From contig JAJEKV010000303.1 of assembly GCA_021234155.1 (NCBI GenBank), positions 186,001 to 250,000 of the forward strand: DNA of 64,000 nucleotides, given 5' to 3'. Source of the stretch: Isoetes taiwanensis (lineage: Eukaryota > Streptophyta > Lycopodiopsida > Isoetales > Isoetaceae). This document shows, one piece after another, positions 1 through 54,344 of the stretch; positions within the stretch are counted from its first letter, which is position 1; each line of letters opens with the position of its first letter. Below the pieces are notes generated by a model. That model searched no databases and was not told the DNA's origin. It saw nothing but the letters and a program-made list of their open reading frames with translations. The translations under genes and the position numbers were made by a program.

Positions 1-103
1 TCACTGGCCGAAAAATTATCTAATAGATATTATTTGCTAATTTACCAGATCATTTTGTGTAACTGTCGCAGCAGGTCATTAACACCCCAAGAATGTACAC
101 AAA

Positions 104-437: not shown

Positions 438-589
438 GAAAATAGTCATTATTAAGTTACTATAATAGATAAATGGGAAAACTACCAAAATACCCTTATG
501 AGTTTATGTAATTACCAAAATGCCCTTATGAGTTTCAAAACTAGCAAAATGCCCCTGGCTCAAATGAATGCACTGTATAAAATAAACCT

Positions 590-1255: not shown

Positions 1256-1344
1256 TTGAAGCAGTAATGTGAGCGGTTAGCAATTCAATGCCAACAAACC
1301 ATTCATCACCGATGGTTCTAAGTACGGCCGATTTGGGTTGGCCT

Positions 1345-1625: not shown

Positions 1626-1639
1626 GAAAATCAAGCAGT

Positions 1640-5030: not shown

Positions 5031-5033
5031 TAA

Positions 5034-12635: not shown

Positions 12636-12812
12636 TCTTACCGGGAATGAAAAAGCTCTCTCCCAAACCTATCCCACTTTTTTTTGCCGTATTATCGTTT
12701 TTGGCAGTCCGATGACGGCACCTTCCGCAGAATATGCTGGCCCAAGCCACCAGTATGGGGTCAACGTGGGGTCAAATTGACCCCATTAAATAGGAGCACC
12801 CCTTGCACATAA

Positions 12813-23550: not shown

Positions 23551-23754
23551 ATATAAACTTTTTGCATATATTACTTATTCTTTTGTTTTCCTTGTCTTGT
23601 CTAATGTAACAACATATCACAAGTACAAGAACCAACGAATTAATAACATATGTAACAATATGATGTGTGCAACAAGAGCAACAAGGACTGGTCGAACCTA
23701 TAGGCACGGGAAGTTTTTCTAACAAACCCAAAGAAGGCAAAAGAGGAATTCGAG

Positions 23755-34019: not shown

Positions 34020-37000
34020 TCGAGCCTAAGATCGATGATCATACATCATGCGGATAAAAATGCAATGCATAAGAATGTAATCATGAAGGCGTACCACACT
34101 AACCGGCCCAATGTAAAATTACACAAATTTGTGAGCTAAAATAACTTCTTGCAAAAACATATACGATCAAGCACCTCCCATTTCACATTGGGCAAACTCA
34201 CCTTGCAAGTTGTGGTACACAATCCTTACGCCACAACATAAAGTATATATATGACCACGAAGTCCTGAACAAGGAAAAACGCATCCTTATGGGAGGTCAA
34301 AATAAATTTCGGAGGGGCAATATCTATCACAAACTATAACAAAAAGCTCCTATGTCGAACTCATCAAGTCTAGCATTCTGCCACCAATCGCCAAACAAGT
34401 AAATTCACAAGGACCCCACTTTTGGTCCCACGCTTGTTTTTTAGTTGTACCTAAGTGTTGTTTTATGCCAAAAACAACAACATTAAAATGGCCTCAAAAG
34501 TCCACGTGGGCCCGCTTATCCGATTTTCAGACAAAGAGACAAGTGGTTTTTGGCGTAAAATTTCCACCGTGGTTTTTGGCACCCTTTTTTTGTCAACGTG
34601 TCTTTTTTTTTCACTATCGCTTTTCGCAAAATTTTGTCAACGTGGTTTTTTTTCTTGATCGTGGTTTTTTTTCACGAGCCATACGTTGTTGTTCATCAAA
34701 ATAACACGCTGCTGGTTTAGATATTACTACACGTAAACTTAAATTACAACGCCAAAGTAAGATGGTTTTTAAAAAATTATATGTCATTTTTTTTTTTATC
34801 GTTGTTTTTTGGAGGAGCCACGCGTTGTTTGTCTTTGAATAAAAACGGGAAAGCTAAAGAAGACAGTTCTCTTTTTATTTTCTATGTGTTGTTTTTTTTT
34901 TTTTATACTTGTAGTTTTTACAAGTTGACATTGTTTTTAAAAAAAAAGGATACATAATCTTTAGGAAATCTACATGTATTGTTTTAAAATTTCATGTTTT
35001 CTATATATTGATATTTCGTCTTCAAGTGTAGTTTTTAAAAGGTTGCATTGTTTTCAATGTTTGTTTTACACAATATGGTACATAGTTAATAAAAAATCAA
35101 CATGTCCTTAAATAAAAATATTATTATGACATATAGGAAAAATAAGTGTTGTTTTTAAAATGTCGCCTAACCAATCATAGATTGACACGTGGCACACATT
35201 TAAAAAAAAATACATGTATACACTAGAATTTAAAAGCCTTGATAATCATATTTTACTTTAAATACAACTTGCCTTTGGGAATCGAACCCAATCAAATCCA
35301 TTAAGCATTTCAAATACCATCATTAAATCAAAAAAATTAAAGTAATGGTTAAGATTCAAAAAAGCAGCTTAAATTTATTGTTTAAGGTTCAAAGCATTGT
35401 CGATGTGATTTTAGCATCGATTATACAAATTTGAACTAAATTTCAACCTTCTTGTTTGATTTTGTGCAAAGACAAACTATGATTTCTCAAGAAATATGCC
35501 TAATTTGTTAGTTGCTTAGAGCACTCACTAGAGTGTTTGATAAAATTTAAACAACTTAGCATATAACCTGGGATCAATAACTAAATAATACTAGCCCGAG
35601 ATCTTTTACCGGGTAATGGTACAAATCTCCATTCATTTCAAATCTTACCGTGGCAGCTTTCCTTGTTTGGATATTTCAGTAAGAAGGCCAAATCATGTAA
35701 GATCCAAGGCAATGGTCAAATCTCCATTCATTTCGCTTCCTAGCTTCAACTTTTGAAGTTGTCCCAACAATTAAGATGGAACATAAAGGAGTAGCAATTT
35801 GGTGCTATCCACCGGCATAAACATTAAAAATAGAATGAAACTCTAAACTTGAATTTGTTATTCAAAGACGTAGTATTATATATATGATGTTGTACCTACG
35901 CCATTCTTGCTTCCGCTCCACTTCACAACCAGCCTTTCACATTGTCCATTCTCTAATAGCTGGAAGCTTTGGCCATCGCTACATTGTCCATTCAAAACCT
36001 AAAGTCTGCGGGCCATGGCTCTCGGTCAAAACCACCTGTAAATGAAAGTGTTAGTCGATGTAAGAACAAAAGCAAAAACGTAAGAACAAAAGCAAAAACG
36101 TAATGATAAACGTAATGTTTTTCAACGTAAGACAAAATGAAAGAAAAATAGCTTTACCTTAATTCAATCCTTATCCGAGGCATCCGATGTGGCATGGTTG
36201 AATGCTTGTTTGAATGCTTGAAGATGTCGGATTAGCTAATGCAGTAGTTTTGAAGGCATGCAATGATGCATAATCAACCCCATTTGGAATGATAGCAAAT
36301 CACAACAATGATAACAAGTAAAGAAAAGTATGTTCAAAACAACGGTTCGAAGTTTGTACATCGCGAAAAGCAAGTACCCAAAGGAATCCTAAGCAACCAC
36401 TCAAGCTAATAACTTTTCCCCAAATACAAGCATTTACCTTGGCAAAAATGGGACTTTGGATGTACTCAAAACAGTAATCGCAGGTTTTTTTTTAAGATTG
36501 AAAGTATCGGAAAGACGAACTAGCGTGAAGAAGCAAAGAAGGAGTTCGCTCGTGATGAGCAATGAGGGAAGCAAGTTTTTTCATGAGCAATAACCGTAAA
36601 ACGAGGCTTGAAAACTTCATGCAAAACAAGAGCTACAAATCCAAAATATTGTAGCATCGACTCCAAAACCTCAGAGCATGACTCCAACCACCCAAACCGT
36701 TAAGAAAGCAAAGGTCGAAAGCTCCAAGCATCCTTAGATCCAAGCCCTGTTCTACAAAGAAACCGCCCGCAACCGCTTAAAATCTTGAGCGCCATGACCA
36801 AAATCGGAGCCATGATAAACCCGGGAAGGCCCACCATGAAAAAAACTAAGAAAAGGATTTGAGAGTAGGTGAGGCGGCAAAACTATCGAGGCGGGAAAGT
36901 GACCCAACCAATAGCATGATAATACAAGGATCAAAAATCCCGACCGCTAGTCTCTTCCAAATCTGAACCGGTTAATCTCGTCATTTGATGGACCGCGCCT

Positions 37001-37430
37001 CAAATTATGCGCCTTTTATTTCACTTAACATATGAGCATATATGAGCACTAAATACACAAAATGTGCAAATATCGCATGTATGGGGATGCCCACCGAGCA
37101 CATTCTGGTGTGGACGGGGCCCTCAAGCGATCGACGGGCGCCGGAGTAATACCGCCACACCGGACAAAGCGACCGGGTGGGTATCCCACAACATGGAAGG
37201 GGAGCCAACCCCTTTTGTTTTCTCCCCTGCTGGCCAAGGCGAGCTCGGCTATAGCGACTTAAGGAGAGACGGCCTCCTAGCCTCTCCCTCCGATCCGACG
37301 CTGTCTTCGTGAAGCAAGGCTATTTCTTCAGCAGTTTTTTCCTCCCTTTGTTTTCTATTGTACATGAGGTTCGATCTATGGCTTCAAAGCAGTAGACGGC
37401 CTTCTAGGCCCCCATTCGCCGTTGTTCGCC
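34020..37430. other. Unassigned AT-rich region
   Basis: T-rich low-complexity sequence with many GTTTTTT runs from 34430 to about 35180, then AT-rich DNA without convincing frames to about 37000. A GC-richer patch (37060-37320) just before the minisatellite block has open frames on both strands but no recognised motif. A tRNA-like B-box near 35277 is listed separately. Confidence 0.4.
35230..35345 (-). repeat. Possible tRNA-derived SINE remnant
   Basis: On the minus strand the sequence TGGGTTCGATTCCCA (about 35274-35290) is a perfect tRNA T-arm and internal polymerase III B-box. A weak A-box-like segment (ATGGTATTTGAAATGC) lies about 35 bp upstream of it. No complete cloverleaf or anticodon stem can be built, so this is a SINE or tRNA relic at most, or chance. 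Confidence 0.25.
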
Positions 37431-37439
37431 AGCGCTTCA

Positions 37440-37840
37440 TGAATGACAAAGTAAAAAGTGGCATGATGATGTGGCGAAAGGTATTTCTTGCAAAAGTTGA
37501 CATGCACATGTTGATGTGGCATGCCATTGGTGACATGTCATGCCAAGTGGGGCAAGGCCAACTTTTGACTAGGCCAAAAATAAAAAATGTGCAACTTTGG
37601 TTTTCCATGGGTTGATGTGGCAAATTTTCGTGACATGGCAAGATATGGGGTGATGTGGACGTGATGATGACCCACCCTATGCAAACTCTCGGGCATGTTT
37701 GTCCTCCGCTCTCGATGCAAAAAATGTAGGGTTCACGCGGCGGCTGCTCCCTGCCACAAGTGGCCAAGAGTTGGCGTGGCATGTCGTTACCCTTGTGGCA
37801 ACTAACAAACAAAGATGGCAAAGATGATGTGGCACTCAAA
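37440..37840 (+). repeat. Spacer unit A1 of the minisatellite block
   Basis: About 380 bp containing GTTGATGTGGCATGCCATTG, GGCCAACTTTTGACTAGGCC, TTTGGTTTTCCATGGGTTGA and GATGATGACCCACCCTATGC. The same ordered landmarks recur at 38690-39050 (A2) and in part at 39880-40030 (A3). Each copy is followed by hairpin minisatellite sequence. Confidence 0.85.
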
Positions 37841-38690
37841 CATGGCTCAAACATGCCACGTGGGTTCCAACATGCCACCTAGGTCCAACATGCCAAGGGT
37901 GGCTCAAACATGCCACCTAAGCCCAACATGCCAAGGTGGCTCAAACATGCCACCTAGGCTCCAACATGCCAAGGTGGTTCAAACATGCCACCTAGGCTCC
38001 AACATGCCAAGGTGGTTTCAAACATGCCACCTAGGCTCCAAACATGCCAAGGTGGTTTCCAACATGCCACCTAGGCTCCAACATGCCAAGGTGGCTCAAA
38101 CATGCCAAGGTGGCTCAAACATGCCACTAGGGCTCCAACATGCCAAGTTGGCTCAAACATGCCACCTAGGCTCCAACATGCCAAGGTGGCTCAACATGCC
38201 ACCTAGGGTCCAACATGCCACAGGTGGCTCAAATATGCCACCTAGGCTCCAACATGCCAAGGTGGCTCAAACATGCCATTTAGGCTCAAACATGTCAAGG
38301 TGGTTTCAAACATGCCACCTAGGCTCCAACATGCCAAGGTGGCTCCAACATGGCACCTATGTCCAACATGCCAAGGTGGCTCAAACATGCCACCCTATGC
38401 TCAAACATGCCTAGGTGGTTCCAACATGCCACCTAGGCTCCAACATGCCAAGGTGGCTCAACATGCCACCTAGGGCTCAAACATGCCAAGGTGGCTCAAA
38501 CATGCCACCTAGGCTCAAACATGCCAACAGTAGCTCCAACATGCCACCTAGGCTCCAACATGCCAAGGTGCCCAAACATGCCACCTAGGTCAAACATGCC
38601 AAAAAACATGCCATGTAGGCTCAAACATTCCAATTAGGCGTAAAAATGCCAAGGTGGCACAAAACATGCCAAGGTGGCGTAAACATGCCA
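37840..38690 (+). repeat. Hairpin minisatellite array 1 (about 38-bp unit)
   Basis: Tandem units alternate two 19-bp halves, CTCCAACATGCCACCTAGG and CTCAAACATGCCAAGGTGG. The halves contain GCCACCTAGGC and GCCAAGGTGGC, which are inverted complements with one mismatch, so every unit can fold into an 11-bp stem with an 8-base loop. Unit length varies by a base or so, and the frame therefore shifts between units. The long open frames here (for example 37815-38414) are by-products of repetition. Confidence 0.95.
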
Positions 38691-39050
38691 AGGTGGCACA
38701 AAAGTTGACATGCACATGTTGATGTGGCATGCCATTGGTGACATGTCATGCCAAGTAAGCAAGGCCAACTTTTGACTAGGCCAAAAAAAAAAAAAGATGT
38801 GCAACTTTGGTTTTCCATGGGTTGATGTGGCAAATTTTGGTGACATAGCAAGATATGGGTGATGTGGATTTGATGATGACCCACCCTATGCAAACTCCGG
38901 GTGTGTTTGTCTCCGCCCCGATGCAAAAATGTAGGGTTCACGTTATGGGCTGCCCTGCCCCTTGCCACCAAGTGGCCAAGAGTTGGCGGTGGCATGTCGT
39001 TACCCTGTGGCACGAAACAAACAAAGATGGCAAAGATGATGTGGCACTCC
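38690..39050 (+). repeat. Spacer unit A2 of the minisatellite block
   Basis: A second copy of the 37440-37840 unit, collinear with a few indels, from ACATGCACATGTTGATGTGG to GGCAAAGATGATGTGGCACT. Confidence 0.9.
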
Positions 39051-39880
39051 AAACATGGCTCAAACATGCCACGTGGGCTCCAACATGCCACCTAGGCTCC
39101 AACATGCCAAGGTGGCTCAAACATGCCACCTAAGCTCCAACATGCCAAGGTGGCTCAAACATGCCACCTAGGCTCCAACATGCCAAGGTGGCTCAAACAT
39201 GCCACCTAGGCTCCAACATGCCAAGGTGGCTCAAACATGCCACCTAGGCTCCAACATGCCAAGGTATTTCCAACATGCCACCTAGGGTTCCAAACATGCC
39301 AAGGTGGCTCAAACATGCCAAGGTGGCTCAAACATGCCACGGGCCCAACATGCCAAGTTTTCAAACATGCCACCTAGGCTCCAACATGCCAGGAGCCAAC
39401 ATGCCACCTAGGCTCCAACATGCCAAGGTGGCTCAAATATGCCACCTAGGCTCCAACATGCCAAGGTGGCTCAAACATGCCACCTAGGCTCCAACATGCC
39501 AAGGTGGCTCAAACATGCCACCTATGCTCCAACATGCCAAGGTGGCTCAAACATGCCACCTAGGCTCCAACATGCCAAGGTGGCTCAAACATGCCACCTA
39601 GGCTTCAACATGCCAAGGTGGCTCAACATGCCATTAGGCTCAAAACATGCCAGGTGGCTCAAACATGCCACCTAGGGCTCAAACATGCCAAGGGTAGCTC
39701 CAACATGCCACCTAGGTTCCAACATGCCAGGAGCTCAACATGCCACCTAGGCTCAAACATGCCAAGGTGGCTCAAACATGCCATGTAGGCTCAAACATTC
39801 CAAAAAGGTAGAAACATGCCAAGGTGGCACAAACATGCCAAGGTGGCGTAAACATGCCAAGGTGGTATGTTGGAAAAAAG
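39050..39880 (+). repeat. Hairpin minisatellite array 2
   Basis: The same alternating 19-bp halves as array 1, most regular between 39100 and 39260 and between 39420 and 39600. It ends in a run containing CCAAGGTGGCACAAACATG that also closes array 1 (about 38645-38690). Together with the A units this shows duplication of a segment of roughly 1.2 kb. Confidence 0.95.
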
Positions 39881-40040
39881 TTGACATGCATTTTGTTGAT
39901 GTGGCATGCCATTGGTGACATGTCATGCCAAGTAAGCAAGGCCAACTTTGACTAGGCCAAAATAAAAAATGATGTGCAACTTTGGTTTTCCATGGGTTGA
40001 TGTGGCAAATTTTGGTGACATAGCAAGTTGATGTGGCAAA
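39880..40040 (+). repeat. Partial spacer unit A3
   Basis: Carries the first half of the A unit (TGTGGCATGCCATTGGTGAC through GGGTTGATGTGGCAAATTTT), with the last phrase repeated once. It breaks off at the point where the minisatellite reverses direction. Confidence 0.85.
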
Positions 40041-40425
40041 TTTTGGTGGCATGTTGGAGCCTGTGTGGCATGTAAAATGTTGGAGCCCAAATGGCATGTT
40101 TGAGCCACCTTGGCCATGGAGTCCACGCAGATAAGTTTCCCACCTGGCATGTTGGAGCCTGTGGGTGGCATGTTGGAGCCTAGGTGGTATGTCGGGGTTT
40201 CCACACGGTATGTTTGCTTCACCTCGCATGTTTGAGCCTAGGTGGTAAGTTGGTGCCTAGGGTGGCATATTTGAGCCCACCTTGGCATGTTGGAGCCAGG
40301 TGGCAGGTGGCATGTAACATGTTGGAAACATGGCATGTTTGAGCCACATGTTTGGCATGTTGGAGCCAGGGAGCATGTTGGGTGGCATGTTTGAGCCACC
40401 TTTCCATAGTTGGAGGCTAGGTTGA
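40040..40425 (-). repeat. Hairpin minisatellite array 3, inverted
   Basis: The same halves appear here as reverse complements (GGCATGTTGGAGCCTAGG, GGCATGTTTGAGCCACC). This part can pair with array 2, about 200-1000 bp away, to form a long snap-back structure. Confidence 0.9.
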
Positions 40426-40439
40426 CTATTTGTAGCAAA

Positions 40440-40835
40440 ACCCATATCCGACTAATATAGTGACTTGTAGGTCCTATCCGACTAATGTCTTGACGCTTAA
40501 TTTCGAGACCAACTAAAAACCCAGCTCATGTCAAACAGAGTGAAGATGACAAAAATAGTTGTCAAAACTATTTGTCAAACCCATAACTAGGTGACCAATA
40601 CCTAACCAATGACATGACTAATATTGTGTCTAATAATGTGACTAATAAGTTGACGGCACCCCGACGAATTATTTATGACTAAAGGGCTGACTAATAACTT
40701 GACCGTGATATCCGACTTCAATTGTCCGACTAAACGCTTGACTTGTAATGGAAAAAAATTGACTATATGTACGACTAAGTTTGGTGACTAATGTTTTGAC
40801 TATCTTGTGAGGTTAGTCAAGATACACGCCATACA
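40440..40835 (+). repeat. Degenerate TGACTAAT array, left
   Basis: The motif TGACTAAT or CCGACTAAT recurs roughly every 12-20 bp with variable spacers, often followed by TTGAC. The array begins at the inner edge of the inverted minisatellite. The same motif, on the same strand, forms an array at 51830-52330 on the other side of the CACTA core. Clusters of short motifs of this kind are typical of CACTA subterminal regions, where the element's DNA-binding protein attaches. Confidence 0.75.
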
Positions 40836-41148
40836 TTATATCTATTAATATATTAAACCTCCATCTATAGTTTCTTTTAAAAGTCTAATGTTGTTTGACA
40901 ATCTATAATTTCTCCTTTATCCAATATCATCTATGTAACTTATCCCAAATGTTTTTCTAATATGGGAAGGCCATGTTTCACTAACTCCATTAAGCAGGAA
41001 GAAATGCATTGGTTAATTTTGTTTTGTTCGTGTGTTGTCTACGTTCTTGTATTGAAAGAAATCATAGGAGCACATGGAAATACATACTTCAAAAAAAAAA
41101 AGATGTGAATCATAATACATTTAGCTTAAACATATTGAAATGTGATCT

Positions 41149-44100
41149 CTATTCATTTGTCATGAAATCCTCATCTAAGAAATCATGTTGTATATCATTC
41201 CATTCATCGCCATCTAGTTGTAGAAGCAACCTTCGCGTGATATTTGGCATTTCAAGCTCAACCTCATCCTCCCTCTTCAATATAATCCTCCCCGCCATTG
41301 GGGAGTGCATTGGTGATCTCAATTCTTCATTGTTTGTTTGCCCTTGAGCTTCATAATCTTCTACATCTTGTGGCTCCCAAACATCTTGCTCATTCTCTAT
41401 ATCTTCCTCATGCTCCTCCCTTCTTCCCGAATGATTATATTGTGAACGGTCGATGCGGATGTTGGTTCCAGAGGGTATAACGATCCACCATGTATTGTTT
41501 TGAGGATTGACATGGAAAAAAACTTGTTGAACCTGCCGTGGGATACACAAATGGTTCACTTGCATCTACTAAAACATGCGTGGAATCAACTTCAAAAACC
41601 AGATGGATGTGGTCGCGACTGCTTGGTTTCTTCCCATGTATAGAGGCTTGAACCATTTTGCTTTTTAGAATGGTCTCTTAAACGAACTAAAAATCAACAT
41701 CAATAATATCAAGAATAACTCCAACATATTCAAGCTCTCCCAAGAATAGGGTTGTCATCTCTAACACTTGCTCGACTCTTTTGGTGAAACGAGGCAATTA
41801 TTCCGTAATCACAAGTGACACGAAGCTTTGTCAATGCTATCAATTAAAAATGTTGACCATAGGCCCACATTGAATTATGGAACCTAGCCCGCAAATTGAA
41901 TAAAAGATCAAGAAGTGGCAGATATGGGATGGTGTATGAATGCAATAATGTAAAATAACAATAACACATTTGATCTTATCGATCTATTGCAGCCAAGTGC
42001 AATGTTGAGGTCATCCTCTTCTATTTTTTTCTCCTTTGTCTTCGGGCCTCCCAAAGTTTTTCGTGATAGCCACCAATAGGGCGGAGTGTCGTGAAGGGGC
42101 CTTAGTTCCTCGAGGATATTGTACTTTCCTATGACGCCCTCGACGGTTCCTTGCAAAGATATGCTTTTCTATCACTATCTCTCTCAGGCCTTTTCCACTT
42201 TATATAGTTCCACCCACCTAGTAAGACCATCCGCATTGTTCAAGACCTAATTTGTTGATGCCTTCAAACATCTCGCCACTTAACCTTCGCCACTCCCCGA
42301 CCTTGTAAAACTTCACCTTCTAACCAATCAGAGCCTCCTTCTTCCAAATCTTTGGTGCATTTGGATCTATTGATGTAGTGGCATCTGTTAAGAAAAATAA
42401 TGTCTCTTGGATAAGGTGTCCTTCGCCATACACCCTCAGCCTAGCCATCCAAGACAAATCCTTTTAATACCTTCATATACCTCTCTAAAAAAGAACATCC
42501 ATCTAGAGGGGTTTGGACCCACAAGCAAAATCTCTTGTGGCAAATGCACCAACAAATGTACCGATGATCACATTTTTTAGTATGTGTGATTGCCAAAATG
42601 TAACGTGATTCAACTACCTACATACCCAAGATCAAAAAACTAGTGGGAAATAAGTGTTCTAGTTGGCATAATATCTCAATCTCTATTTCCATGGTGGGAA
42701 TATCAGCCTACAATCTCTTTTAGAAGACACCCACCTAGAGAAGCTAGCTAGAAGTCTATAGATGATCTTCCTGATAGAAGGCTGAGGCAATTCTCTAAGG
42801 CACATGGGAGAATATAATCGTAAGGAGGAAAAAAAATCAAATTAGTCGCATACAATGAAGTTGTCAATATTGTTGTAGAATAAATACCTGTGAGAAAGTT
42901 GTGCCAATCGTATGCTTAATTTTAAGCCCAAGAAGATCTCCATCTTTTGTGAATGCCCTTCTTAGGGAGGAACCATGGCCGCTTGGAGTGCTAAGAGTTT
43001 TAATAGAGTTTTTCACTTGTTTGAGTTCATCCCTTTTCAAGCACTCCAAGGACCTCGACGAAAAGCGAGGAGCTTTGCCTTCTTCTACTTATATAGGCCA
43101 CAGCTTCGATTTGATGTTGTTATCTTTAGATCATTTTCGCATTAAGAGTCTCCCAATCTCCTCGTAAGATGTCGCCAAAGTGAATGGCTTACATTCTTAA
43201 AGATATGCATAGGATCCAAGAGATGTGCAATCTTCAATTCGCACCCAAGATTCCAACTTGTATAATATGGATAGTCTTTTCATGCCGTGGTGGTGCGTAA
43301 CTGCTCGTGTCACGATCATTCCATGTTTGCAACCAATCATGTGGAGTTCTTCTTCTTCCGGGCACATGTGATGTATCACCATGACTTAAGTTCATGATCC
43401 AATGGTAGATATTTTTATGGTTTGTGTAAATCATCTTTGATAGGTGTTTTGATCTATAAGATGTTAAGTCTTGACCACATGATGGACATCCATATTTTCC
43501 ACTAGTTTGGAGTCCCGCAGTTATTCAATCTTATAATATAGTTGAAAATAATTTAAAATAAGAATATGAATGACAACATTATACCCGACGCAACACCGAA
43601 GTCCCGATAGTCATGAATAGTGAAACATAATATTCCATGAAACATGAAATTGTGTGGTTGTCTCGAATATCATACATATGTATTCCTCTCCATAAAATGT
43701 CAAGTTCATCCACAAGAGGTTCTAAGTACACATTCATATCCTTCACTTGGTGTTTGCCCTCAATACATATCATTCAATATTAAGAAACCATAACCTAGGT
43801 AAAGACAAGTTGTAATGCTACTAAAAGATATTTACCTGCACTATAAGTGTGAGCATTAGATGGCCCGCTTTAGTTGCCATCCAAGGTGGTATATTGTAGT
43901 TTATAACAACAATAGGCCAAACACTATGAGTAGACGACATAATGTGCTAAATGGACATACACCATCCATGCCCAAAACCCAAACTAATATTCCTAGGCTC
44001 CCTTAAAATGCTTCCATTTGTCTTCTATATGTATAAGTGCCTCGCCATCGGGTTGGATACCTCAAGATTCCATCGTTGTTTTTCGTGTTTTGCATGGAAG

Positions 44101-44500
44101 TCCATGAATTGGGCTAGGGAAGGACATTTAAACATAATTTGCAAACGTGGAATGATTGGCATGTGTCGCAAGACTTTCTTTGGCACTTTGGACTTTGCTT
44201 TTTCATCATATCGTGGCTCATTGCACTTGGGACATACATTCATGTCACTATATTCATTGCGAAAGAGTACACAATCATTTACACATGCATGAATGCATTT
44301 GTATTGCAAACCTAGTTCCCGCAATAGTTGTTTCACGCCTCCTTGATTTGGGAAGACAATGATCATTTGAAGTATATAGTCCGCTAGTAAACCGGGTAAA
44401 ACAAAAAACAAAATATCAAGCGAGGAAAAAAACAGAATGGAAAATTTGTAATCCGAACCAAATAACTTGCCTGAGAAGATCATCCACACTATTATTACTC
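41149..44500 (-). pseudogene. CACTA (En/Spm) TNP2-type transposase relic
   Basis: From high to low coordinates the conserved TNP2 parts appear in order. At 44025-44380 the N-terminal block reads LLRELGLQYKCIHACVNDC, then FRNEYSDMNVCPKCNEPRY and VPKKVLRHMPIIPRLQ. Near 43870-44000 Transposase_21 reads SSTHSVWPIVVINYNIPPWM. At 43579-43773 it continues with MNVYLEPLVDELDILWRGI. The DUF4218 region at about 42640-42700 contains EIEILCQLEHLFPTSFF. The C-terminal DUF4216 region is at about 41440-41740 (FKRPF, KAKWFKPLYMG; VQQVFFHVNPQNNTWWIVI), followed by an acidic tail ending at 41149. Stops and frameshifts separate these pieces and introns may account for some of them. The protein normally cuts element ends in the nucleus. 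As read it is not functional. Confidence 0.85.
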
Positions 44501-45039
44501 CAGTTTGATTTGTGTTGTAGGTTCAAAATGAGTATGCATGCAAAGAAGACGCTTAGATATCTTTGCATTTGGGTATAGTGGTTTGGTGGGGTCTCTTTTC
44601 TAGAAGTGTGATAGGTCTCTCATCATCATCACCAACATCCGTGATCATTGTTAGAGTTAGTGGTTGGGAAGTAATTTTGAATAGCTTCCATCAAACCACT
44701 CAAAGATGGAAGCCACTTTGAGCAGAGGAGTTTTCATTTCCATCGCCGCTGATCGCAGAAATGACAACGCATGTTTATTTCTTTTGTGGGAGTTTGTACA
44801 TGTGATGATATACAAAAGATAAAGAGAAAATAAACATGCATTGATGATAAGACACAACCATTAATGAAACATCATTACATGATTAACATCACAAAATCAT
44901 AAACCATTAAAATTAGATTATCGATCATTAGCTTTACATGTCAATTGTACAATTATACATCTAGGCGACGCTTCCTTCCATAGGGCACAACAATTGGTTC
45001 ACCACGCTTCTTACGCTCCACTCGCCTTGGGGTATCTCC

Positions 45040-45540
45040 CGAAAGGATAGTTGACAAACAATTCCTCTCCGTGATCTGAGGTTATGTGATGGCACAAACT
45101 CTCACATACGGTCCAAAGATACCCATGCATGTAATATGGGTCATATTCTCAGTAGTCTCTTCAAATTCTCTGTGATTTGTTAATTGGGATGACCACGAGA
45201 GCTATTTATAAGTCCCCAATATTGCCATGAACACTTGGTCGGCCATCAATATATATGCACCGCTGCGGTGGTATATTCTCCACGATCTCTCCGCCACTCA
45301 AAGATGCCGATTCAATGCCATAGCATAAGTAGACATACTAGGCATAAAAGAAGCAAGTTTATGCCATAACCCCAAGGATACTTTTGGGCCACCAAACACC
45401 ATCAACACAGTTGAGTGTCCAGATGGGACTTTCACATGTTCCATTATGTACAAACCCCTTCCAGCTTGTGGTATTTCTAAAGAAGGTGCAATCATGTACT
45501 TATGGCCCCAATACATAAATTCTTCCAGATTGGAGGCGTT
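45040..45540 (-). pseudogene. SET-domain protein relic inside the CACTA element
   Basis: On the minus strand the frame 45298-45516 has APSLEIPQAGRGLYIMEHVK, the G-x-G start of a SET domain. A shifted frame continues IPPQRCIYIDGRPSVHGNIG and then DLINSSRG, matching the I-D-G...G-N...I-N-S-S core of the AdoMet-binding pocket (N-H-S is more usual). A further frame gives FGPYVRVCAI and then DHGEELFVNYPFGRYP, matching the V-R-V-x-A-x-x-x-I-x-x-G-E-E-L-F-V-x-Y end of the domain. The pieces occur in the right order within 500 bp but in three frames, so the copy is broken. SET domains methylate lysines in histones or other proteins. Whether it was captured from a host gene or belongs to this transposon family cannot be told from one copy. 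Confidence 0.65.
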
Positions 45541-46200
45541 CCCCTTCCCAACAGCCTAGGGTTGATCGATCAAATGGAACAATAGAGGCTCTAAGGTGAG
45601 GGGGGAGTTGTTCAGCCATGTCATTTTTTGTTTCACATGCATGAGCAAGACTATATGAAGCTTTTCTTAAAATGGCATTTAAGTTTTCTAGCCAATCGTG
45701 ATTTCCTCTCGTATGACCTCTCTCTCAAGTTCTTGAGTCTCTCTTGGACTAGAACTAGTACTTTTTAATAACCCGATGATCCGTGATGACATGGGCTCTC
45801 TCGATGTCTCGCAAGTTTAGGATTTTCGTGAAGTATGTCCAGATACTATGACAAGTCATATATATTGAGATAGGATTAGAATATTGTATAATAACTAATA
45901 CAAATGCTTAAATACACATATTTTTACCTCATATGCCTCTTGTCGCTTTCAACTCAAGCTCGATGGAGGTGGAGCATTTGGCATCAAACCATACTTCATT
46001 TTGTGATCGCGCCTCGTGGTATACATTCTTCCGCTAGTGCCTTTGCATTTTTGCACCAACAGCTTGTCATATCGCCCGTAAGTCGCCTCCAATGGATCAT
46101 CTCGAAGCCAAGTTTCTTTTGATTTGGAAGATGAAGAAGTTTCATTCCTATGGGAAAAGATGAACATCCAAGTTATTAATAGATGTCCAAACCAAAAAAA
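45540..46200 (-). other. Unassigned CACTA-internal region with short minus-strand frames
   Basis: The frame 45949-46167 (GRYDKLLVQKCKGTSGRMYT) is open and charged but matches nothing I recognise. Near 45640-45730 the minus strand reads LRERSYERKSRLARKLKCHF, also basic. These could be earlier exons of the SET-containing gene or of the transposase. Confidence 0.3.
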
Positions 46201-46890
46201 AAAGAGAGAAGGCTCTTAGAAGAATTAATTCTCTAAGGTATTAGGGGTTAATACCATGGTCAATAGTGTGGCTTTGCACCATTGGACCGAAAATATTAGG
46301 TATTTATAGTGGTTTATAAACGAATACAACATAATCTATAAAGACATATTATCTATATAATCTATAGTGTATGCAAAAGGATATGAGTATATGTAGAAGG
46401 ATCTTAGAAGAGTTAAATATCTAAGGTATTAGGGGTTAATACCATGGTCAATAGTGAGTAATCATGGGTTTAAAGGAAAAAAAGTTTCAAAAAAGTCTTT
46501 ATTGTTGGAGATAATGAATGTAAGAATTATTCTCTTTAGGGTCGAATACAAACACGGGGAAAGTGTACAACCTATTGCATTTCAATTCTAATTGTGACTA
46601 GCCTAAGTTATCAAGAACTCAGAAAAAAATATTCTTCGGTCGATTCCCAATGCAATATCGACAGCATAGGGATAGGAATTAATTATTTTGGAGAAACCGT
46701 AAAAATAGTTGGATCGAAAAGGAATTGTAATAGAGTAATCATGGGTTTAAAGGAAAAAAGTTTCAAAAAAGTCTTTATTGTTGGAGATAATGAATGTAAG
46801 AATTATTCTCTTTAGGGTCGAATACAAACAAGGGGAAAACCTATTGCATTTAAATTCTAATTGTGACTAGCCTAAGTTATCAAGAAAGAG
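46190..46890 (+). repeat. Direct duplications inside the CACTA element
   Basis: A block of about 155 bp starting GTAATCATGGGTTTAAAGG occurs at 46458-46617 and again at 46735-46888, almost identical. A second phrase, TAAGGTATTAGGGGTTAATA, occurs at about 46216 and 46422. A short frame at 46594-46815 spans the second copy and has no recognised motif. Confidence 0.85.
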
Positions 46891-46899
46891 GGAGATCGA

Positions 46900-48000
46900 C
46901 ACCTTGACGCTGGGAGCTCGCCAATAGATGGCATTGAAGATTGATTGCTCGACGGGTGGAGTTACCGATGCTCTGAGGTGCTCATCGCGAGCCACCGGGA
47001 TGCTCGAGGTGCTCATCGCGAGCCACCGGGATGGTCGACGTGCTCATCATGGAGGGACCGTGGTTGCTTAGATGTGCTATGACTCACTGGGATGCTCTTA
47101 GATTCTCAAAATATAAGTCCCGCAAAAACCCTCTTGTATGTACCCTAAAGCCAAGAGCAAATAACAGCAATAAAATTTATGTACCTTAGAAATAGAATAG
47201 TCGAGGGACGATTTTCGTGACTAACAAATCGTCAAATTAAAGCAGAGGATTAACAACTGACGATTTCCCCCTTTTCCTCTTACCCACATTTTGCCCGCCA
47301 TTTCACTTTCACTGTTGGTTTTCTTGATAGCGACTCGCCCTAATCGAGATCAAATCGAGAGAGAGGTTTGAGGAAGCCGGAAAGTGACTAAAACCTAGCC
47401 AGAAACAGGGGCGAAAGTAAGCATTTTTTATCTTTTCTTTTTTTTTACCATTCCGAGATTATGAAACATGTTTGGCATACCTTCTAAATCGGTTCAAGCA
47501 TATCGGCTGTTGCTCTTCCGATTTAGCCAGGTAGGTTATTTCTTCACAGGGTTTCTTCTATGACAGCACAGGTTTATTTCTGCTCTTCCGATCTACTCGG
47601 TTTGATACGAGACTTGCAGCACAGGGCCATTGAATGGTGCAGGGGATCATTACAGGGGATCATTACTACAGGGTTTTTTTTGGGTTTTGCAGTAGCAGTT
47701 CTTCTCATAACATAGCTCTTGGTCTTTTCAGTAAACATCCTATAACTATTCGAAGCCCTTCATAACAGAGCCTGTATTTTTGTTATGCTACTAATGTAAA
47801 ACACTTTCCTTTATGTTTATGAATCTATAATCTAGTATATTTATGGCTGCTACAGATAAATTGTCAATCCCTTTTTTTTCCTTACAAAAGCATCTGAACT
47901 CTTAGAACTCTTAGACGCTTGGATATACAGATAAATTGTCAATCCAAAAGCGTTGTTTTGTTCTACACCATTCTATTTCTTTTCTTTCTATGTCATTTTA
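46900..48000. other. CACTA-internal region, possible 5' end of the plus-strand gene
   Basis: A short duplication (GCTCATCGCGAGCCACCGGG at about 46980 and 47010) is followed by AT-rich DNA. Sequence around 47290-47420 looks like a leader (CGAGAGAGAGGTTTGAGGAA, then a GTAAGC donor near 47420), but no start codon can be assigned. Confidence 0.3.
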
Positions 48001-48009
48001 TTAATCTAT

Positions 48010-51000
48010 TTGCTTATGTTTTTTAGTGGCTCCAAAGGAGAGCTCAAGAAAGAGGGGGGAAGCCTCAATTAAGGAGACATGAGGAAAGCGAGGAAGAGGA
48101 TTCAAGGGACATCACAAAAATAGTTGCGTAAATGGATCACCGACATGCTTAAATTTAAGGCAGCCCTTGACAAGCAAAGCTTGCACACATCGGCACTCCA
48201 TCGCGATACCTCTAATGGACGACGAGGTTCAAGCTCATCTAAAACCATGGAAGATCAAGGTATATGATGAACCACGCCATGTTTTGAACACAATTACTAA
48301 GCTGTCATGTTATTTGTTGTTGCAGTGAGAAATCCACAAGTGTAAGGTCCATTAATGCGCCATCAAGTGAGGATGAAGAAGATGAAAAAGAAGATGATAG
48401 CGCAAGTGATGAGGAGGACGAGGAGCCAAATGAAGAATACGAAGTTACTTTTTATCGTCTTCCTAAAAATGATAAGGTAGATGCTTATTTGTAATGCATT
48501 GTTGGACATTAGATTTAATTTTGTATTATTCTATTCTATTCTATTATTACTAATAATCTATTCATTGTGCATTAGGCGACTATGGTGCAAGGAGGGGAGA
48601 TACACTTAGACGAGAATGTCCAGAATTGGAAGATGTTCTTGGCCCAATGCAGTTGAAAATGATTTGCACCTGAGATTGATAAAGATTGGAAGAAGGTGGA
48701 TGAGAGCTTAAAGAAGAGGTTAGTGAGACACATGGAACATCGCTTTGGTAAAGGGCTCTTTGCATCTGATATATTGAGAAGGGCAGCTCGAATATTCAAT
48801 CATTGGAAGTAAGCTACTTAGTCATTTTATACCTTGTTTTATGATTTCCTCATTATTTGTCATTGTTGTCATGTTGTGTAGGGATTGGTTAGGTAGAAGT
48901 GATAAGAAAATAGCCCCCAACCATGTAAAAGATGTCGTTTGGGAGAGATTTCATGGATAAGAAGAAACCCCGCCACCAACAAAAAAGGCAAAAGGCAAAG
49001 AAGGAAACCTCATGGCTAAAGACTTGGACGAAGGGGACATGCCGGAATCATCGCTGATTATGTAAGTACTACATAACTTCTCCCTTGTATTCTCATTTCT
49101 CAGATAGATCCCAGCCATTGTCGTTCATTTCTTTTCAAAGCACCAACAAGTAGCACCAACATGGCGAGATGCCCTAGTATGATCTTCCAGCCCAAATTGT
49201 CCATCCGCTTCTCCATGTTAAATTAAAAGTCCATGTTTTGAGTTATAGCCGCTCAAAGTTGGAGGTGGCTTTTGTTGTTCTTTCTGCTGTTTGCAAACCT
49301 GTTTCTCCATGCAGACAGATCTAGCAAGGGCTCCTTAGCCTCTTTCATCACCAAGACAGCATGCACGTAAAAGTTAGTGAACTTGCCTGATGAGATAGGA
49401 GATTTGGAAAATCAAGGTACTGGATTTAGGAAACAACCACTTGAATGGATCTATACCCTCTAGTTTTGACAAGTTACGGTGAGCTACTTATCTTGGATTT
49501 GAGCTATAATCACCTGGTTAATTAAATACCAAATGAGTCAAGAAATATCTCCACCAATGCATCCAGCATTGCCTAGCCAGATAGAATTGCTTGGATGTAT
49601 TCTATTTGGATTTCTTTTGTTTAACTAATCGTATTTTTGATCTCCCAGAGTTCCGTGATTGGGTGCTTATCCTTCCGCAACAACTATGGCGTAAATAAAA
49701 AAAAAAGAGGTCCTATAAGGTGTATCGAGAATCCCCTCGATTGCCGAAGGGAGAATTCCTCGAAATGTAAGTCTCTTATCCATTTGTCTTGTCATTTGCT
49801 TTCTAAATAACGTTGTTTTTTAATAAGCCCATTGCTACAATGCATTCTTTGGTAGAAATCTCTCGCATGACATGATTAATTGTTTTATCTGATGTCAATC
49901 TATGGCTAAACCATGATTGCTATGAGGAAAGATCATATCTCCGTGATAGCCATCTTCCTTTCTCGATTTTCCTCATTTACACAATCGCCAAGAGCTCCGA
50001 TCCCTCATTTTGGACCGAAAGGAAAGAAGTCAAGTCCGGCAAATTGGAGGGAAATTGCCTACATTTGCAAGTCTTATTCTCGCACCTAACATTTGTGGCC
50101 TATTACCTCACCGGAGTTTTCACGATGGCTAAAATGTGCGCAGTGATGCCCCGCTGGCTATATTTTAGTAATAGCTTGTGTTGGAAAATTAGCTAGGTTA
50201 CTCATATTTTCTCGCTTCAGAGAGTGGCTTTAGGAGCTTGGAATCAAGTGGGTGAAGGTTAATGTTCGATATTGACTATTTCAAACGTAAATTATTTATG
50301 CCTTGGATTCTGATTTTGATTCAATTTAAAACATGAAGCAATTTTATATTGCCCTCGAGATTTAATCATGGTGCTAGTTTGGACATAGCCATGGTCTCCT
50401 TCAATAGCCCGCTTCATCCTATGTCTAATTGAAGATCCTGAATGTTTTTCAAAGAAAGACCCATCGCCTAGTGCTTTTTGTAAAAGCCTTCTAGTGTCCC
50501 TTTGACTGAAATGGAATTGTATAAGAACCGCCCGATGGTGAGTGCTTTTTGTGGCAAATAGGTATGCCAAAGTTGTTGTAAAGACAATCTTTGTAAAAGC
50601 TATGAATTAAAAAGAGAGCATCTTATATCCCCAACGACTATGAAGAAAAATATTTTTGTTAAGACCTTTAAATATAAAAGCGGAAGGCCTCTTGGAAACC
50701 ACTCTTGGAAACAAGTGTTGCAGACAAGGTATGCTCCATAGCAAACTTGATTCAGTTGCATTTTTTGCTGTCTCATTTATATGCTACCTCTAGTGGTTGG
50801 ATCAGGTTAGAAAGTTGTGGATTATTTGAAAAGCGTTTCTTCTGTTTTGATGTTAACATGATTTTTCAATTTCTGATTTTGATTAGTGGCTTTGAATTCT
50901 TGTAGTTTGAAGCATTAGATTTCTTAGGAAAGAAGGGTGAGAGGAAGAATAAGCAGCGAAGAAAACAAATAAAGGTAATTTCTACATTGATTATCTTTAG

Positions 51001-51465
51001 CATTCTAATATATTCTAAACTCACCTTAAAATTATTTTCTTATTTTAGGATGCAAACACCAAAGTGCAGAAAGATCAAAGGGAAGTAAGTGGACTGCTAC
51101 TGGATGTGGATCAGGAAGGCGAGAATGTCCGTGGAGTTGAAGTAGTTGACGGAGGTGTTGAAGTAGTTAATGAAGTAGTTGATGGAGGTGAGAAAGAAGT
51201 GAATGGAGTTGAAGATACTAGAGCGGAATCAGAAGTGGGGGCAGCTATGGAGTTGACCGCTGGTAATGTTAATCTGCCACCTGAGTCTGCTGAAATTGAT
51301 GCTTTCTATGATACGTTGTTGGAGAAGGGATTGACGGGTGTGAGGAGGGTGGAAGAGATGATTGTTAGGAAGAACAATGATGTGGAGGAGGTCACTAGGA
51401 GGAGCGACAATGCATCCACATCGAGAAAGAAAGGGAAGAAAAGCAAGAACCGAGGCATTGGGTGA
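48010..51465 (+). CDS. Intron-bearing CACTA-internal gene, possible TNPA-like accessory protein
   Basis: Exon-like segments with good splice borders are spread over 3.4 kb. One ends KNDK then GTAGAT (about 48475), following a highly acidic run (SSEDEEDEKEDDSASDEEDE). The next, after ATTAG (about 48576), encodes GGEIHLDENVQNWKMFLAQC and, with an intervening stop, APEIDKDWKKVDESLKKRLV through RAARIFNHWK, then GTAAGC. After TGTAG (48882) comes DWLGRSDKKIAP. The final exon after TTTAG (51050) runs open to 51465, encoding a valine- and glutamate-rich stretch and a basic end (STSRKKGKKSKNRG). Two-domain proteins with a W-K-x-V-x-x-x-L-K-K block then a conserved second block are common as the second gene of plant CACTA elements. 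I infer a DNA-binding accessory role. At least two in-frame stops (near 48655 and 48958) indicate a damaged copy. Confidence 0.35.
49255..49540 (+). pseudogene. Captured LRR receptor-like fragment
   Basis: Inside the span of the plus-strand CACTA gene, one frame reads WRWLLLFFLLFANLFLHAD, a signal-peptide-like hydrophobic run. Shortly after, in other frames, come NLPDEIGDLEN, VLDLGNNHLNGSIPSSF and LLILDLSYNHLV with a following IPNES. These are three plant leucine-rich repeats of the L-x-x-L-D-L-S-x-N-x-L-x-G-x-I-P type. Frames change between repeats, so nothing functional remains. Cell-surface LRR proteins of this type begin with a signal peptide and then repeats, so this resembles the 5' part of a host gene. 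Confidence 0.55.
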
Positions 51466-51469
51466 ACTT

Positions 51470-51825
51470 GACTTCTGATTTCGTGGATGGTAGTATTGCA
51501 CGAAACATTGCACAATATAAAGCAATTCAAAAGGATAAGAGGACATAGCTGGCTGATACGCACTCACATCACTTTGATGTAAACTCTTTCTTCATGTGTT
51601 TCAAGACTTACTCTTTCTATTTGTAATGACTATCTTCTTTTTAAGAAAGTGTTTAAGTTTTTGAGATGTACAATAATCGCCTTCATCTTTAAATTGCGTT
51701 TATTCTTTTGTGTATTGTAACAAATGTTAATTACATAATTGCATTTTATTCTATTATGTACAAATGCTAATTGCATGTCTATTGGAACAAATATTGATAG
51801 AAGATCGATAGACTGGATCTTGGTC
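51470..51825. other. 3' flank of the CACTA plus-strand gene
   Basis: AT-rich sequence after the stop at 51465, with no frame or motif seen before the TGACTAAT array starts. Confidence 0.4.
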
Positions 51826-51829
51826 GCTC

Positions 51830-52330
51830 TTTTTGACCAAACAAATGATGTGGCTTAATAACTTGACGAATCATCTGACTATAACCTGAACACTACTATG
51901 ACTTAATGCTGACCAATATTCTAACTAATATTATGACGAAATTTCTGACTAACTATCTGACTAATAATATGACTATAATTGTAACTAATGAGCTGCCTAA
52001 TTATTTACCTAATAAAGTGACTAATTGTCTAACTAATATGCTGACTAAAGTACAACTAAAAGATTGACTAGTTATCTAACTAATATAGTGACTAATATAT
52101 GCTGACTAAACGTTTGACTAGTTGTCTAACTAACACGATGACTAAACTTCTGACTAATAACAAATTATTTCCGACTAATGAGGTGTTATATCGACGTGAT
52201 TATTCCGACTATATTGACGACGCGACGATCTCGGTTGACTATTATTCGTCAGATAAAACTCGTCAGTTCCTTCGTCAGGAGTAAGGCTTTGGCACCTGCC
52301 TACTTTATGAAGGATCTCTGACGAATACAC
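51830..52330 (+). repeat. Degenerate TGACTAAT array, right
   Basis: TGACTAAT, CTAACTAAT and CCGACTAAT phrases recur every 12-20 bp from about 51855 to 52225. It ends in a run of CGTCAG and CTGACG phrases (52240-52335). It mirrors the array at 40440-40835 and is on the same strand. A CGTCA-type phrase is also seen internally near 47210-47260. Confidence 0.75.
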
Positions 52331-52339
52331 TGACGTTTA

Positions 52340-52755
52340 GCCATCATTCTCTTGTAGCCTTAGCGGAGGGTGCGAGAATCTTTCGCCATGTAGAGGGTTC
52401 GTGTTTCTTTTTGCTGCAAAAATGACCGCGGTAACTTGGTCCCTAGGGTAATTTCGCTGTTTTGGACGACACGGCGAAGTCAAATCTCCATTTAGAACCT
52501 TTGTACTTGCCCGACGACAAAACACTTGGGTTTCTACATCGCCCGACTACAAGACACTTTGGCGGAGGGATATGTTCTCCGGGGACGGATCTTGAATTTT
52601 TGAGCCTTTGATCGAAGCAAGTTACCCTAATAGAGAATTCAGCGGTCGGATAGGGAAACGGGTTCAGGGAAGGGAGGCATTGGCATTTGCCCTCCGGAGG
52701 AGCACCGGTAGGAAAGCCTTCTCAGTAACCTTTGTGATGTCCGTCTCACGGGGTC
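52340..52755. other. Spacer between right TGACTAAT array and right minisatellite
   Basis: Less AT-rich sequence with the duplicated phrase GCCCGACGACAAAACACTTG / GCCCGACTACAAGACACTTT (about 52510 and 52540). No coding evidence. Confidence 0.4.
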
Positions 52756-52757
52756 GG

Positions 52758-53590
52758 CCACCTAGGCTATAACATGCCACAGGCTTCAACATGCCCGTGA
52801 GCTCCAACATGCCACGTGAGCTCCAACATGCCAAGTTGGCTCCAACGTGCCACCTAGGCTCAAGCATGCCAAGGTGGCTCAAATATGCCACCTAGGCTCC
52901 AACATGCCACCCGGGCTTCAACATGCCGCGTAGGCTCAACATGCCAACTAGGCTCCAGCATGCCTCGTGAGCTCTAGCATGCCACCTAGGCTCCAACATG
53001 CCACCTGGGCTCCAACATGCCAAGGTGGCTCCAACATGCCACCTAGGCTCAAAGTGTGCAAGGTGGCTCAAACATGCCACATAGGCTCCAACATGCCACC
53101 TATGCTCCAACATGCCACGTGGGCTCAACATGCCACCCAGCATGCCACCTAGGCTCCAACATGCCACGGGCTCCAACATGCCACGTGAGCTCCAACATGC
53201 TAAGTTGGCTCCAACGTGCCACCTAGGCTCAAGCACGCCAAGGTGGCTCAAATATGCCACCTAGGCTCCAACATGCCACCAAGGCTTCAACATGCCACAC
53301 AGGGCTCCAACATGCCTAGCATGCCACCTAGGCTCCAACATGCCACAGGCTCCAACATGCCACGTGAGTTCCAACATGCCACATAGGCTCCAACATGCCA
53401 AGTTGGCTCCAATGTGCCACCTAGGCTCAAGCACGCCAACGTGGCTCAAATATGCCCACCATCACTCCAACATGCCACGTAGGGTCGCAACATGCCACGG
53501 GCTCCAACATGCCGTGAGCTCTAAACATGACACCTAGGCTCCAACATACATGCCACCAAGGCTTCAACATGCCACGTGGGCTCCAACGCA
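52758..53590 (+). repeat. Hairpin minisatellite array 4 (right flank)
   Basis: Same family as arrays 1-3, in the same orientation as arrays 1 and 2, but more diverged (CACGTGAGCTCCAACATGCC, CCACCTAGGCTCAAGCATGC). A larger segment of about 350-450 bp is itself repeated (compare 52780-52920, 53160-53290 and 53335-53450). Confidence 0.9.
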
Positions 53591-53799
53591 TGAATGACCA
53601 AGGCAAGATATGAATGACATGGACATGGACTTGATGGCGTTTAGGATATTGTTAGGATTTTTGCGTGGTCCTATGACATTAATGCTTATGGATTTGTTCT
53701 TGCGGTCCCGCACCAAAATCAAGGAATACAAATCAAATTCTTGATGGTTTTGTTATGCAAAAAATAGGCGTTAAGTAATTGAAGTAGTTGAAGTAACTT

Positions 53800-54340
53800 G
53801 TCTTGCATGGAATACTAGTATAAGGACATGTGATCGTGCATGTGCATCACATGTAGCAAATCAAGTACTCTGTCCTACCACTATAAAGACAAGTGATATG
53901 GAAGGATAGGACATGTAGAGAATCAAGTATTCTTTCCTACTTCTATAAAAACATGTGACAATAGAATTATTAAACATGTCGTAATTCATGTATTCTTTCC
54001 TACAATGCCTTAGCAAATAAAGTACTCGTCTACTACTATAAAGACATGTGACATGGAAGCATACGACATGTAGAGAATCAAGTATTCTTTCCTAGTTCTA
54101 TAAAGAAATGTGACAATAGAAGTATTACACATGTCGTAATTCATGTATTCTTTCCTACAATGCCTTAGCAAATAAAGTACTCTGTCCTACTACTATAAAT
54201 ACATGTGAATGGAAGTATAGGACATGTAGAGAATCAAATATTCTTTCCTACATCTATAAAGACATGTGACAATAGAATTATTAGACATGTAGAAATTCAA
54301 AGTATTCTTTCCCTCAAATTGGATTGTATTATAAAATGAC
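53800..54340 (+). repeat. Tandem repeat array with ACATGT-containing units
   Basis: Units of about 55-60 bp combine into a repeat of roughly 160 bp, carrying CTATAAAGACATGTGACAAT, GACATGTAGAGAATCAAGTA and TTCTTTCCTAC. The block AATTCATGTATTCTTTCCTACAATGCC occurs twice (about 53985 and 54135). It lies just outside the right minisatellite. Confidence 0.85.
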
Positions 54341-54344
54341 ATGT

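What the first reader, a model, noticed from the sequence alone, without database searches (positions are those of the whole stretch)
37400..53600. Composite giant CACTA element bounded by nested repeat shells
A TNP2 transposase relic, a SET-domain relic, a second plus-strand gene and an LRR fragment occupy about 41-51.5 kb. On both sides there is first a TGACTAAT array and then the same hairpin minisatellite. This repeat-gene-repeat symmetry suggests a single element of about 16 kb with two-layer subterminal regions, a much longer terminal structure than usual for CACTA elements. The symmetry is in order, not orientation: the TGACTAAT motif is on the same strand on both sides.
Basis: partly seen in the sequence, partly recalled or inferred. 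Interest (0 to 1): 0.75.

Follow-up and report, generated by a model that had tools for sequence, protein, structure and literature searches.

The report
Jumping gene with SET domain

Summary
The repeats and gene relics are real, but they are not one 16-kb element. A 93%-identical copy in the same genome (C1026), a relative with intact ends (C101) and a repeat copy without the transposon (C983) fix the borders. The CACTA element fills 40,425-52,359 (11.9 kb). Its right terminus is a mutated CACTACAAGAGAATGATGG; about 52 bp of its left end are lost. The TGACTAAT arrays are its subterminal repeats; C101 also has them on one strand at both ends. The AACATGCC minisatellite is absent from C1026 and C101. 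It belongs to a dispersed repeat that the element appears to interrupt (homology to 34,490-40,422, and again from 52,357).

More interesting is the 'SET relic': it is the upstream part of the transposase unit. Of 142 listed SET matches in this genome, 43 have a listed TNP2 domain within 5 kb downstream on the same strand, none in another arrangement (random mean 0.36). Three families keep open SET frames, in one comparison constrained like TNP2 (dN/dS 0.27, 0.26). A Riccia protein has the same order. SET genes in Harbinger and MuDR transposons are in print; my searches found no CACTA case. What the SET part does is inferred.

The parts
40425..52359 (-). CACTA element of the SET-TNP2 lineage (transposase strand given); left tip of about 52 bp missing
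   Evidence: 93.4% identity to C1026 over 11.7 kb (window 51,965-40,425) and 94.8% over 231 bp to 52,180; terminus at 52,359
52341..52359 (-). 5' terminal repeat, mutated: GGCTACAAGAGAATGATGG for CACTACAAGAGAATGATGG
   Evidence: W101 has the intact form at both ends, 28 of 30 positions, TSD ACA/ACA; AC[AT]AGAGAATG 4 times in 568 kb of strand, 3 of them 5' ends of SET-TNP2 elements (the loci searched were mostly fetched TNP2 copies)
51830..52240 (+). TGACTAAT-type subterminal array, 5' side
40430..40810 (+). TGACTAAT-type subterminal array, 3' side
44944..46199 (-). SET relic, upstream part of the transposase unit (stops and frameshifts)
   Evidence: 85% DNA identity to W101 over 46,199-44,118
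44461..44619 (-). linker exon (LILNLQ..WSN.SV.DLLR) between SET and TNP2
   Evidence: 58% over 31 aa to the C1045 linker
43380..44430 (-). TNP2 (Transposase_21) relic
   Evidence: PF02992 E=3.3e-27
41149..42600 (-). DUF4218 and C-terminal part of the transposase relic
   Evidence: PF13960 E=1.4e-8; C-terminal part without a Pfam hit but shared by W101 and W1026
48007..49100 (+). second gene, first part, divergent from SET-TNP2
   Evidence: shared with W101 and W1026; open 187-aa frame in W101
51049..51465 (+). second gene, last part
   Evidence: 60% and 87% amino-acid identity to W101 and W1026
49323..49525 (+). LRR fragment, probably captured
   Evidence: LRR_8 E=3.7e-7; found in W1026, not in W101 or the 10 first copies
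34490..40422 (+). flanking dispersed repeat R, left part (includes minisatellite and spacer)
   Evidence: 87.4% over 6,182 aligned bases to C983 positions 1-5976
52357..52717 (+). flanking repeat R resuming in the same orientation
   Evidence: 85% to C983 positions 6516-6872
37844..39865 (+). minisatellite arrays with 350-bp spacer (in R, not in the element)
40045..40422 (-). inverted minisatellite array (in R)
52757..53587 (+). right minisatellite array, rearranged flank
53641..54524 (-). block of R, inverted relative to C983
   Evidence: 93% to C983 positions 8076-7184

Best explanation
A decayed 11.9-kb CACTA (En/Spm) DNA transposon of a SET-TNP2 lineage lies in a copy of a dispersed, minisatellite-bearing repeat. 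SHOWN: the borders, the gene order, SET upstream of TNP2 as a recurrent arrangement in this genome, CACTA ends and a 3-bp duplication in a relative, and the flanking repeat without the transposon elsewhere. INFERRED: (1) TNP2 cuts and joins the CACTA ends; (2) the divergent second gene, or TNP2, binds the TGACTAAT subterminal arrays; (3) the SET part, made as a fusion or from the same transcription unit, methylates histones or another protein at the element, keeping it expressible or steering excision or insertion; (4) this copy is dead (stops, frameshifts, lost left tip). The confidence given is for the anatomy and the SET-TNP2 arrangement; step 3 alone I put at about 0.35.
For: Borders: W1026 and W101, C983, terminus string. 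SET-TNP2: 43 of 142 listed SET rows have a listed TNP2 within 5 kb downstream on the same strand, 38 of the 43 at 905-1,460 bp, none in another arrangement, random mean 0.36 and maximum 2; some rows are pieces of one locus, and 40 distinct TNP2 places are involved. 5 of the first 10 fetched copies have SET about 0.7 kb upstream of TNP2. SET passes Pfam's cut-off in C1045 (32.6 bits). C1064 has CACTA ends 12 of 14 and TSD TAC around SET and TNP2. dN/dS 0.27 for SET (260 codons) and 0.26 for TNP2 (266 codons), C941/C1082. Riccia P0002 joins a SET-like part with TNP2 and DUF4218.
Against: The window's own SET is below Pfam's cut-off. Its left terminus and target duplication cannot be read. 5 of the first 10 fetched copies show no SET, and only 40 of 150 typed TNP2 places have a listed SET upstream, both lists being truncated. 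The tree does not give the SET-bearing transposases one origin (5 changes; window on a long branch). Stops follow SET closely in families A, B and E. M-like motifs and R-like repeats do lie beside TNP2 in C1040, C1037, C952, C907 and C941, so R is not wholly unconnected with these elements. About 540 bp of R is missing at the left junction and the right flank is rearranged.
Confidence: 0.88

Rival explanations
1. One reading: one ~16-kb CACTA element with two-layer ends, the minisatellite being the outer layer.
For: The order on both sides; M-like motifs downstream of TNP2 in family A copies C1040, C1037 and C952.
Against: CACTA ends of the family lie inside the minisatellite; W1026 and W101 lack it; C983 has it without the element; 0 of 38 spacer places are within 30 kb of 176 TNP2 places.
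Confidence: 0.03
2. SET and TNP2 are two separate proteins made from one transcription unit or neighbouring genes of the transposon, not a fusion.
For: A stop follows SET within a few codons in families A, B and E.
Against: Possible GT donors lie just before those stops and AG acceptors at the linker exon (by eye); Riccia P0002 is one gene model with both parts.
Confidence: 0.4
3. The SET part no longer acts as a methyltransferase and serves as a structural or DNA/histone-binding part of the transposase.
For: The usual NHS motif (recalled) reads INSS here; no solved SET structure matched by sequence; SET-less copies and families exist.
Against: Invariant G-x-G-L, Asn and Tyr positions in a four-row alignment; constraint equal to TNP2 in one pair.
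Confidence: 0.35
4. The SET gene lies beside TNP2 by chance or by capture in this copy only.
For: CACTA elements are known to capture gene fragments (PMC8978399, passages); the LRR piece here looks captured.
Against: 43 of 142 against a random mean of 0.36, and the Riccia protein.
Confidence: 0.01

Closest known systems
CACTA / En-Spm elements with TNP2, e.g. soybean Tgmt* (PMC2613891, passages read)
   Same: TNP2 transposase with DUF4218, CACTA ends and 3-bp duplication (in relatives), subterminal repeat arrays, 10-12 kb (Tgmt* is 20.5 kb)
   Different: SET domain upstream of TNP2; a second gene on the opposite strand; subterminal motif on one strand at both ends
SET-encoding HarbingerS and MuDR transposons of Phytophthora (stated in PMC12730594, passages read; Repbase Reports not seen)
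   Same: A DNA transposon carrying a SET gene
   Different: Other transposase superfamilies and hosts; here a CACTA TNP2 transposase in a plant
Vandal anti-silencing proteins and fungal TET/JBP-bearing transposons (PMC12730594, passages read)
   Same: Proposed logic: a transposon protein acting on its own epigenetic marks
   Different: Different proteins; no functional data here
Satellite arrays associated with CACTA elements in Chenopodium (PMC8978399, passages read; PMC7320549, listing and abstract start)
   Same: Tandem repeats found with CACTA elements
   Different: Here the minisatellite lies in a separate repeat that occurs without the element

Membership tests
CACTA / En-Spm | TNP2 (Transposase_21) domain | tested here: met
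   E=3.3e-27, above the curated cut-off, on X-joined pieces
CACTA / En-Spm | CACTA...TAGTG terminal inverted repeats | tested here: inconclusive
   Window: right end mutated (GGCTA), left end lost. Relative W101: CACTACAAGAGAATGATGG at both ends, 28 of 30
CACTA / En-Spm | 3-bp target site duplication | tested here: inconclusive
   Not readable in the window; W101 ACA/ACA, C1064 TAC/TAC
CACTA / En-Spm | subterminal repeat arrays at both ends | tested here: met
SET-domain protein | SET domain above Pfam cut-off | tested here: inconclusive
   Window relic not met (E=0.19); same-genome C1045 met (32.6 bits, cut-off 22.4)
SET-domain protein | lysine methyltransferase activity | not testable with these tools
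   sequence only
HarbingerS (SET-bearing Harbinger) | Harbinger transposase | tested here: not met
   The transposase matches TNP2; no other transposase family was listed at E<=1

The most novel reading that the evidence does not exclude
An old lineage of plant CACTA transposons carries its own histone methyltransferase, fused to or co-transcribed with the transposase, and uses it to write marks on its own chromatin that counter silencing or steer transposition. It has spread to hundreds or more copies in this (probably liverwort) genome and is shared with Riccia.
Probability: 0.35. Interest if true: 0.85.

Novelty: new variant of a known kind. Interest (0 to 1): 0.62.

Why it matters
Transposons that bring their own chromatin enzymes make the contest between host silencing and mobile DNA directly testable. 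A SET domain placed at the head of the CACTA transposase unit, with open frames kept in several families, would be a plant case beside the oomycete Harbinger/MuDR and fungal TET examples. It also shows how an old insertion inside a minisatellite-bearing repeat can look like one giant element with layered ends.

Tried and rejected
Searching the window alone for CACTA/TAGTG ends gave nothing above 40 other region pairs. AlphaFold of P0001 without an alignment failed (mean pLDDT 30.5). Viral contigs held no relative of P0001. The 8 PDB sequences listed for the C1045 SET at E<=10 were not SET proteins by name. Rfam and tRNA scans of the window found nothing. My idea that the minisatellite was an inner part of these elements, from M-like motifs in family A, was dropped after W1026, W101 and C983 were read, but that observation stands against a clean separation. 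Spacer/TNP2 distances used 38 spacer places and 176 TNP2 places: 132 and only the first 44 of the 150 typed. Unusable dN/dS values: the C907 SET piece was out of frame (pN 0.56); C1040/C952 TNP2 gave 0.70 (C952 decayed); saturated pairs gave none.

Literature: searches listed no paper on a SET-bearing CACTA element. These were listings, some cut (20 of 25, 15 of 56, 25 of 65); most subscription journals are not held and Repbase Reports was not seen.
Full report
OBSERVATION. The features are in the sequence. The TNP2 relic (minus strand, 44.4-41.1 kb) scores E=3.3e-27 on PF02992 when its pieces are joined with X, with DUF4218 at 1.4e-8. The SET relic (46.2-44.9 kb, minus) is below Pfam's cut-off on its own (E=0.19) but matches P0001, a database protein with a SET domain, at E=9.9e-20 and 37% identity. 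The LRR fragment is real (LRR_8, E=3.7e-7). [TC]GACTA motifs: 12 plus and 0 minus on the left, 14 and 0 on the right, against resampling maxima of 4 and 8. The minisatellite stands on the plus strand on both sides, with an additional inverted array at 40,045-40,422.

BORDERS. The window lies in contig C906 of a 1.66-Gb, 1,110-contig genome. Its TNP2 has listed relatives at up to 76% amino-acid identity over 213 residues, and shorter matches at 80% and 92%. I fetched two of them. C1026 (W1026) matches the window at 93.4% over 11.7 kb, window 51,965 to 40,425, and at 94.8% over 231 bp up to 52,180. C101 (W101) is a 10,342-bp element with terminal repeats CACTACAAGAGAATGATGG(T/C)TAAACGTC matching at 28 of 30 positions, target duplication ACA/ACA, and GACTA arrays on one strand at both ends. 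So the odd same-strand symmetry is a property of the family. Both copies carry SET, TNP2 and the divergent second gene.

The window's right end reads GGCTACAAGAGAATGATGGCTAAACGTCAG from 52,359 on the minus strand. The string AC[AT]AGAGAATG occurs 4 times in 568 kb of strand examined, the other three being 5' starts of SET-TNP2 elements; those loci were mostly fetched TNP2 copies, so this is not a genome-wide frequency. On the left the family homology stops at 40,425, about 52 bp short of the terminus seen in W1026. No left terminus or target duplication can be read in the window.

THE OUTER SHELL. The 358-bp spacer between the minisatellite arrays has 1,670 first-look candidates in this genome, of which 40 were scored; six pairs lie 1.0-1.27 kb apart. 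None of 38 places outside the window lies within 30 kb of the 176 TNP2 places I compared, both lists being only part of what exists. One such place, C983, was read. It is homologous to window 34,490-40,422 (87.4%, 6,182 aligned bases, one alignment) and again, in the same orientation, to 52,357-52,717 (85%); its 9 kb give no match to my TNP2, SET or second-gene queries. The flanking repeat thus stops 3 bp before the element homology begins and resumes within 3 bp of the right terminus. About 540 bp of the C983 repeat is missing at the junction, presumably lost with the element's left tip. Beyond 52,717 the window's flank differs from C983: a minisatellite array, then a C983 block inverted (93%). 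I read this as an old insertion into a copy of this repeat, followed by deletion and rearrangement; the steps after insertion are inference. Against a clean separation: sequences related to this repeat or its minisatellite lie beside TNP2 in C1040, C1037, C952, C907 and C941.

SET-TNP2. I fetched ten TNP2 copies from the top 18's listing. Five had a SET homologue on the same strand, its match ending about 0.7 kb before the TNP2 match (C1045, C1064, C1040, C1037, C907). The other five did not: C942 and C1031 align with C1045 on both sides of the SET exon but lack it, C952 shows only the linker, and C921 and C1039 are a family with perfect ends and no SET match. Both relatives of the window, chosen by TNP2 similarity, have SET (2 of 2). 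C941 and C1082 were chosen because both domains were listed there.

A genome search with the C1045 SET gave 142 matches from 1,852 first-look candidates (141 scored). Of the 142 rows, 43 have a TNP2 place typed within 5 kb downstream on the same strand, 38 of the 43 at 905-1,460 bp; none lies near such a place in any other arrangement; 200 random placements gave a mean of 0.36 and a maximum of 2. Some rows are pieces of one locus. Seen from the other side, 40 of 150 TNP2 places have a listed SET upstream. Both lists are truncated, so the fractions are likely to be low.

The C1045 SET passes Pfam's cut-off (32.6 bits). C1064 has CACTA ends (12 of 14 positions) with TSD TAC around SET and TNP2, 11.6 kb, its SET interrupted. 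Open SET frames of about 273-279 aa occur in three families, at about 97%, 62% and 48% identity to the query. dN/dS: SET 0.27 and TNP2 0.26 for C941/C1082; SET 0.19 for C1045/C1040 with saturated dS (1.49) and 0.11 for a 112-codon part of C1064/C1045; TNP2 0.28, 0.20 and 0.09 (the last with dS 2.0) for C1045 against C1064, C942 and C1040. The invariant positions of the four-row SET alignment include the GxGL, INSS and G-x-E-x-F-x-x-Y residues.

Outside this genome, 1 of 120 listed TNP2 proteins, that of the liverwort Riccia sorocarpa, matches a SET profile made from alignment A1 (E=6.9e-15); its precomputed Pfam list names no SET domain. The best TNP2 database hit was Riccia and the seventh was another liverwort, Calypogeia, from which I infer that the source is a liverwort or near kin; the genome itself is unnamed. 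The tree does not show one origin of the SET-bearing transposases, and the window's branch is long.

ONE PROTEIN OR TWO. A stop codon follows the SET domain within a few codons in families A, B and E, while AG acceptors precede the linker exon and GT donors lie close by (read by eye). The Riccia gene model joins both parts. I leave fusion or co-transcription open.

MECHANISM. Shown: anatomy, recurrence, constraint in the pairs named. Established for CACTA elements in general: a TNP2-type transposase is needed for excision and a second protein binds the subterminal repeats (passages of PMC2613891). Inferred: the SET part modifies histones or another protein at the element to its benefit. PMC12730594 (passages) states that SET methyltransferase genes were incorporated by HarbingerS and MuDR families of Phytophthora, and that some transposons encode proteins that change epigenetic marks. 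The searches named in Tried and rejected listed no SET-bearing CACTA element.

VERDICT. The composite giant element is not supported. What stands is a new variant of the CACTA kind, with a SET region upstream of TNP2, found through one dead copy and supported by many others in the same genome.

Noticed in passing
L019/L020 (C952), about 13.2-20 kb of the joined, reversed stretch: A roughly 1.1-kb unit related to the flanking repeat R is repeated in tandem directly behind a SET-less TNP2 copy.
   Followed up: partly
L011/L012 (C942) and L021/L022 (C1031): Family B relatives that align with C1045 on both sides of the SET exon but lack it: candidate SET-less derivatives for comparison.
   Followed up: partly
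L025/L026 (C921) and L027/L028 (C1039): CACTA elements with 14 of 14 terminal repeats, TSD TTT/TTT, about 97% alike over the transposase region and without a SET match.
   Followed up: no
window 49323-49525; W1026 5401-5589: LRR fragment shared with C1026 (89%) but not found in C101: looks like a gene fragment captured in this branch of the family.
   Followed up: partly
window 11526-12668: 380-aa open frame with an F-box (PF12937 E=1.2e-7).
   Followed up: no
window 22583-25609: Open pieces that look by eye like a Gypsy-type retrotransposon; not tested.
   Followed up: no
window 10961-11605 and 53854-54312: A 325-bp unit in two copies and a 155-bp unit in about three copies; the second lies in the inverted block of R.
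   Followed up: no
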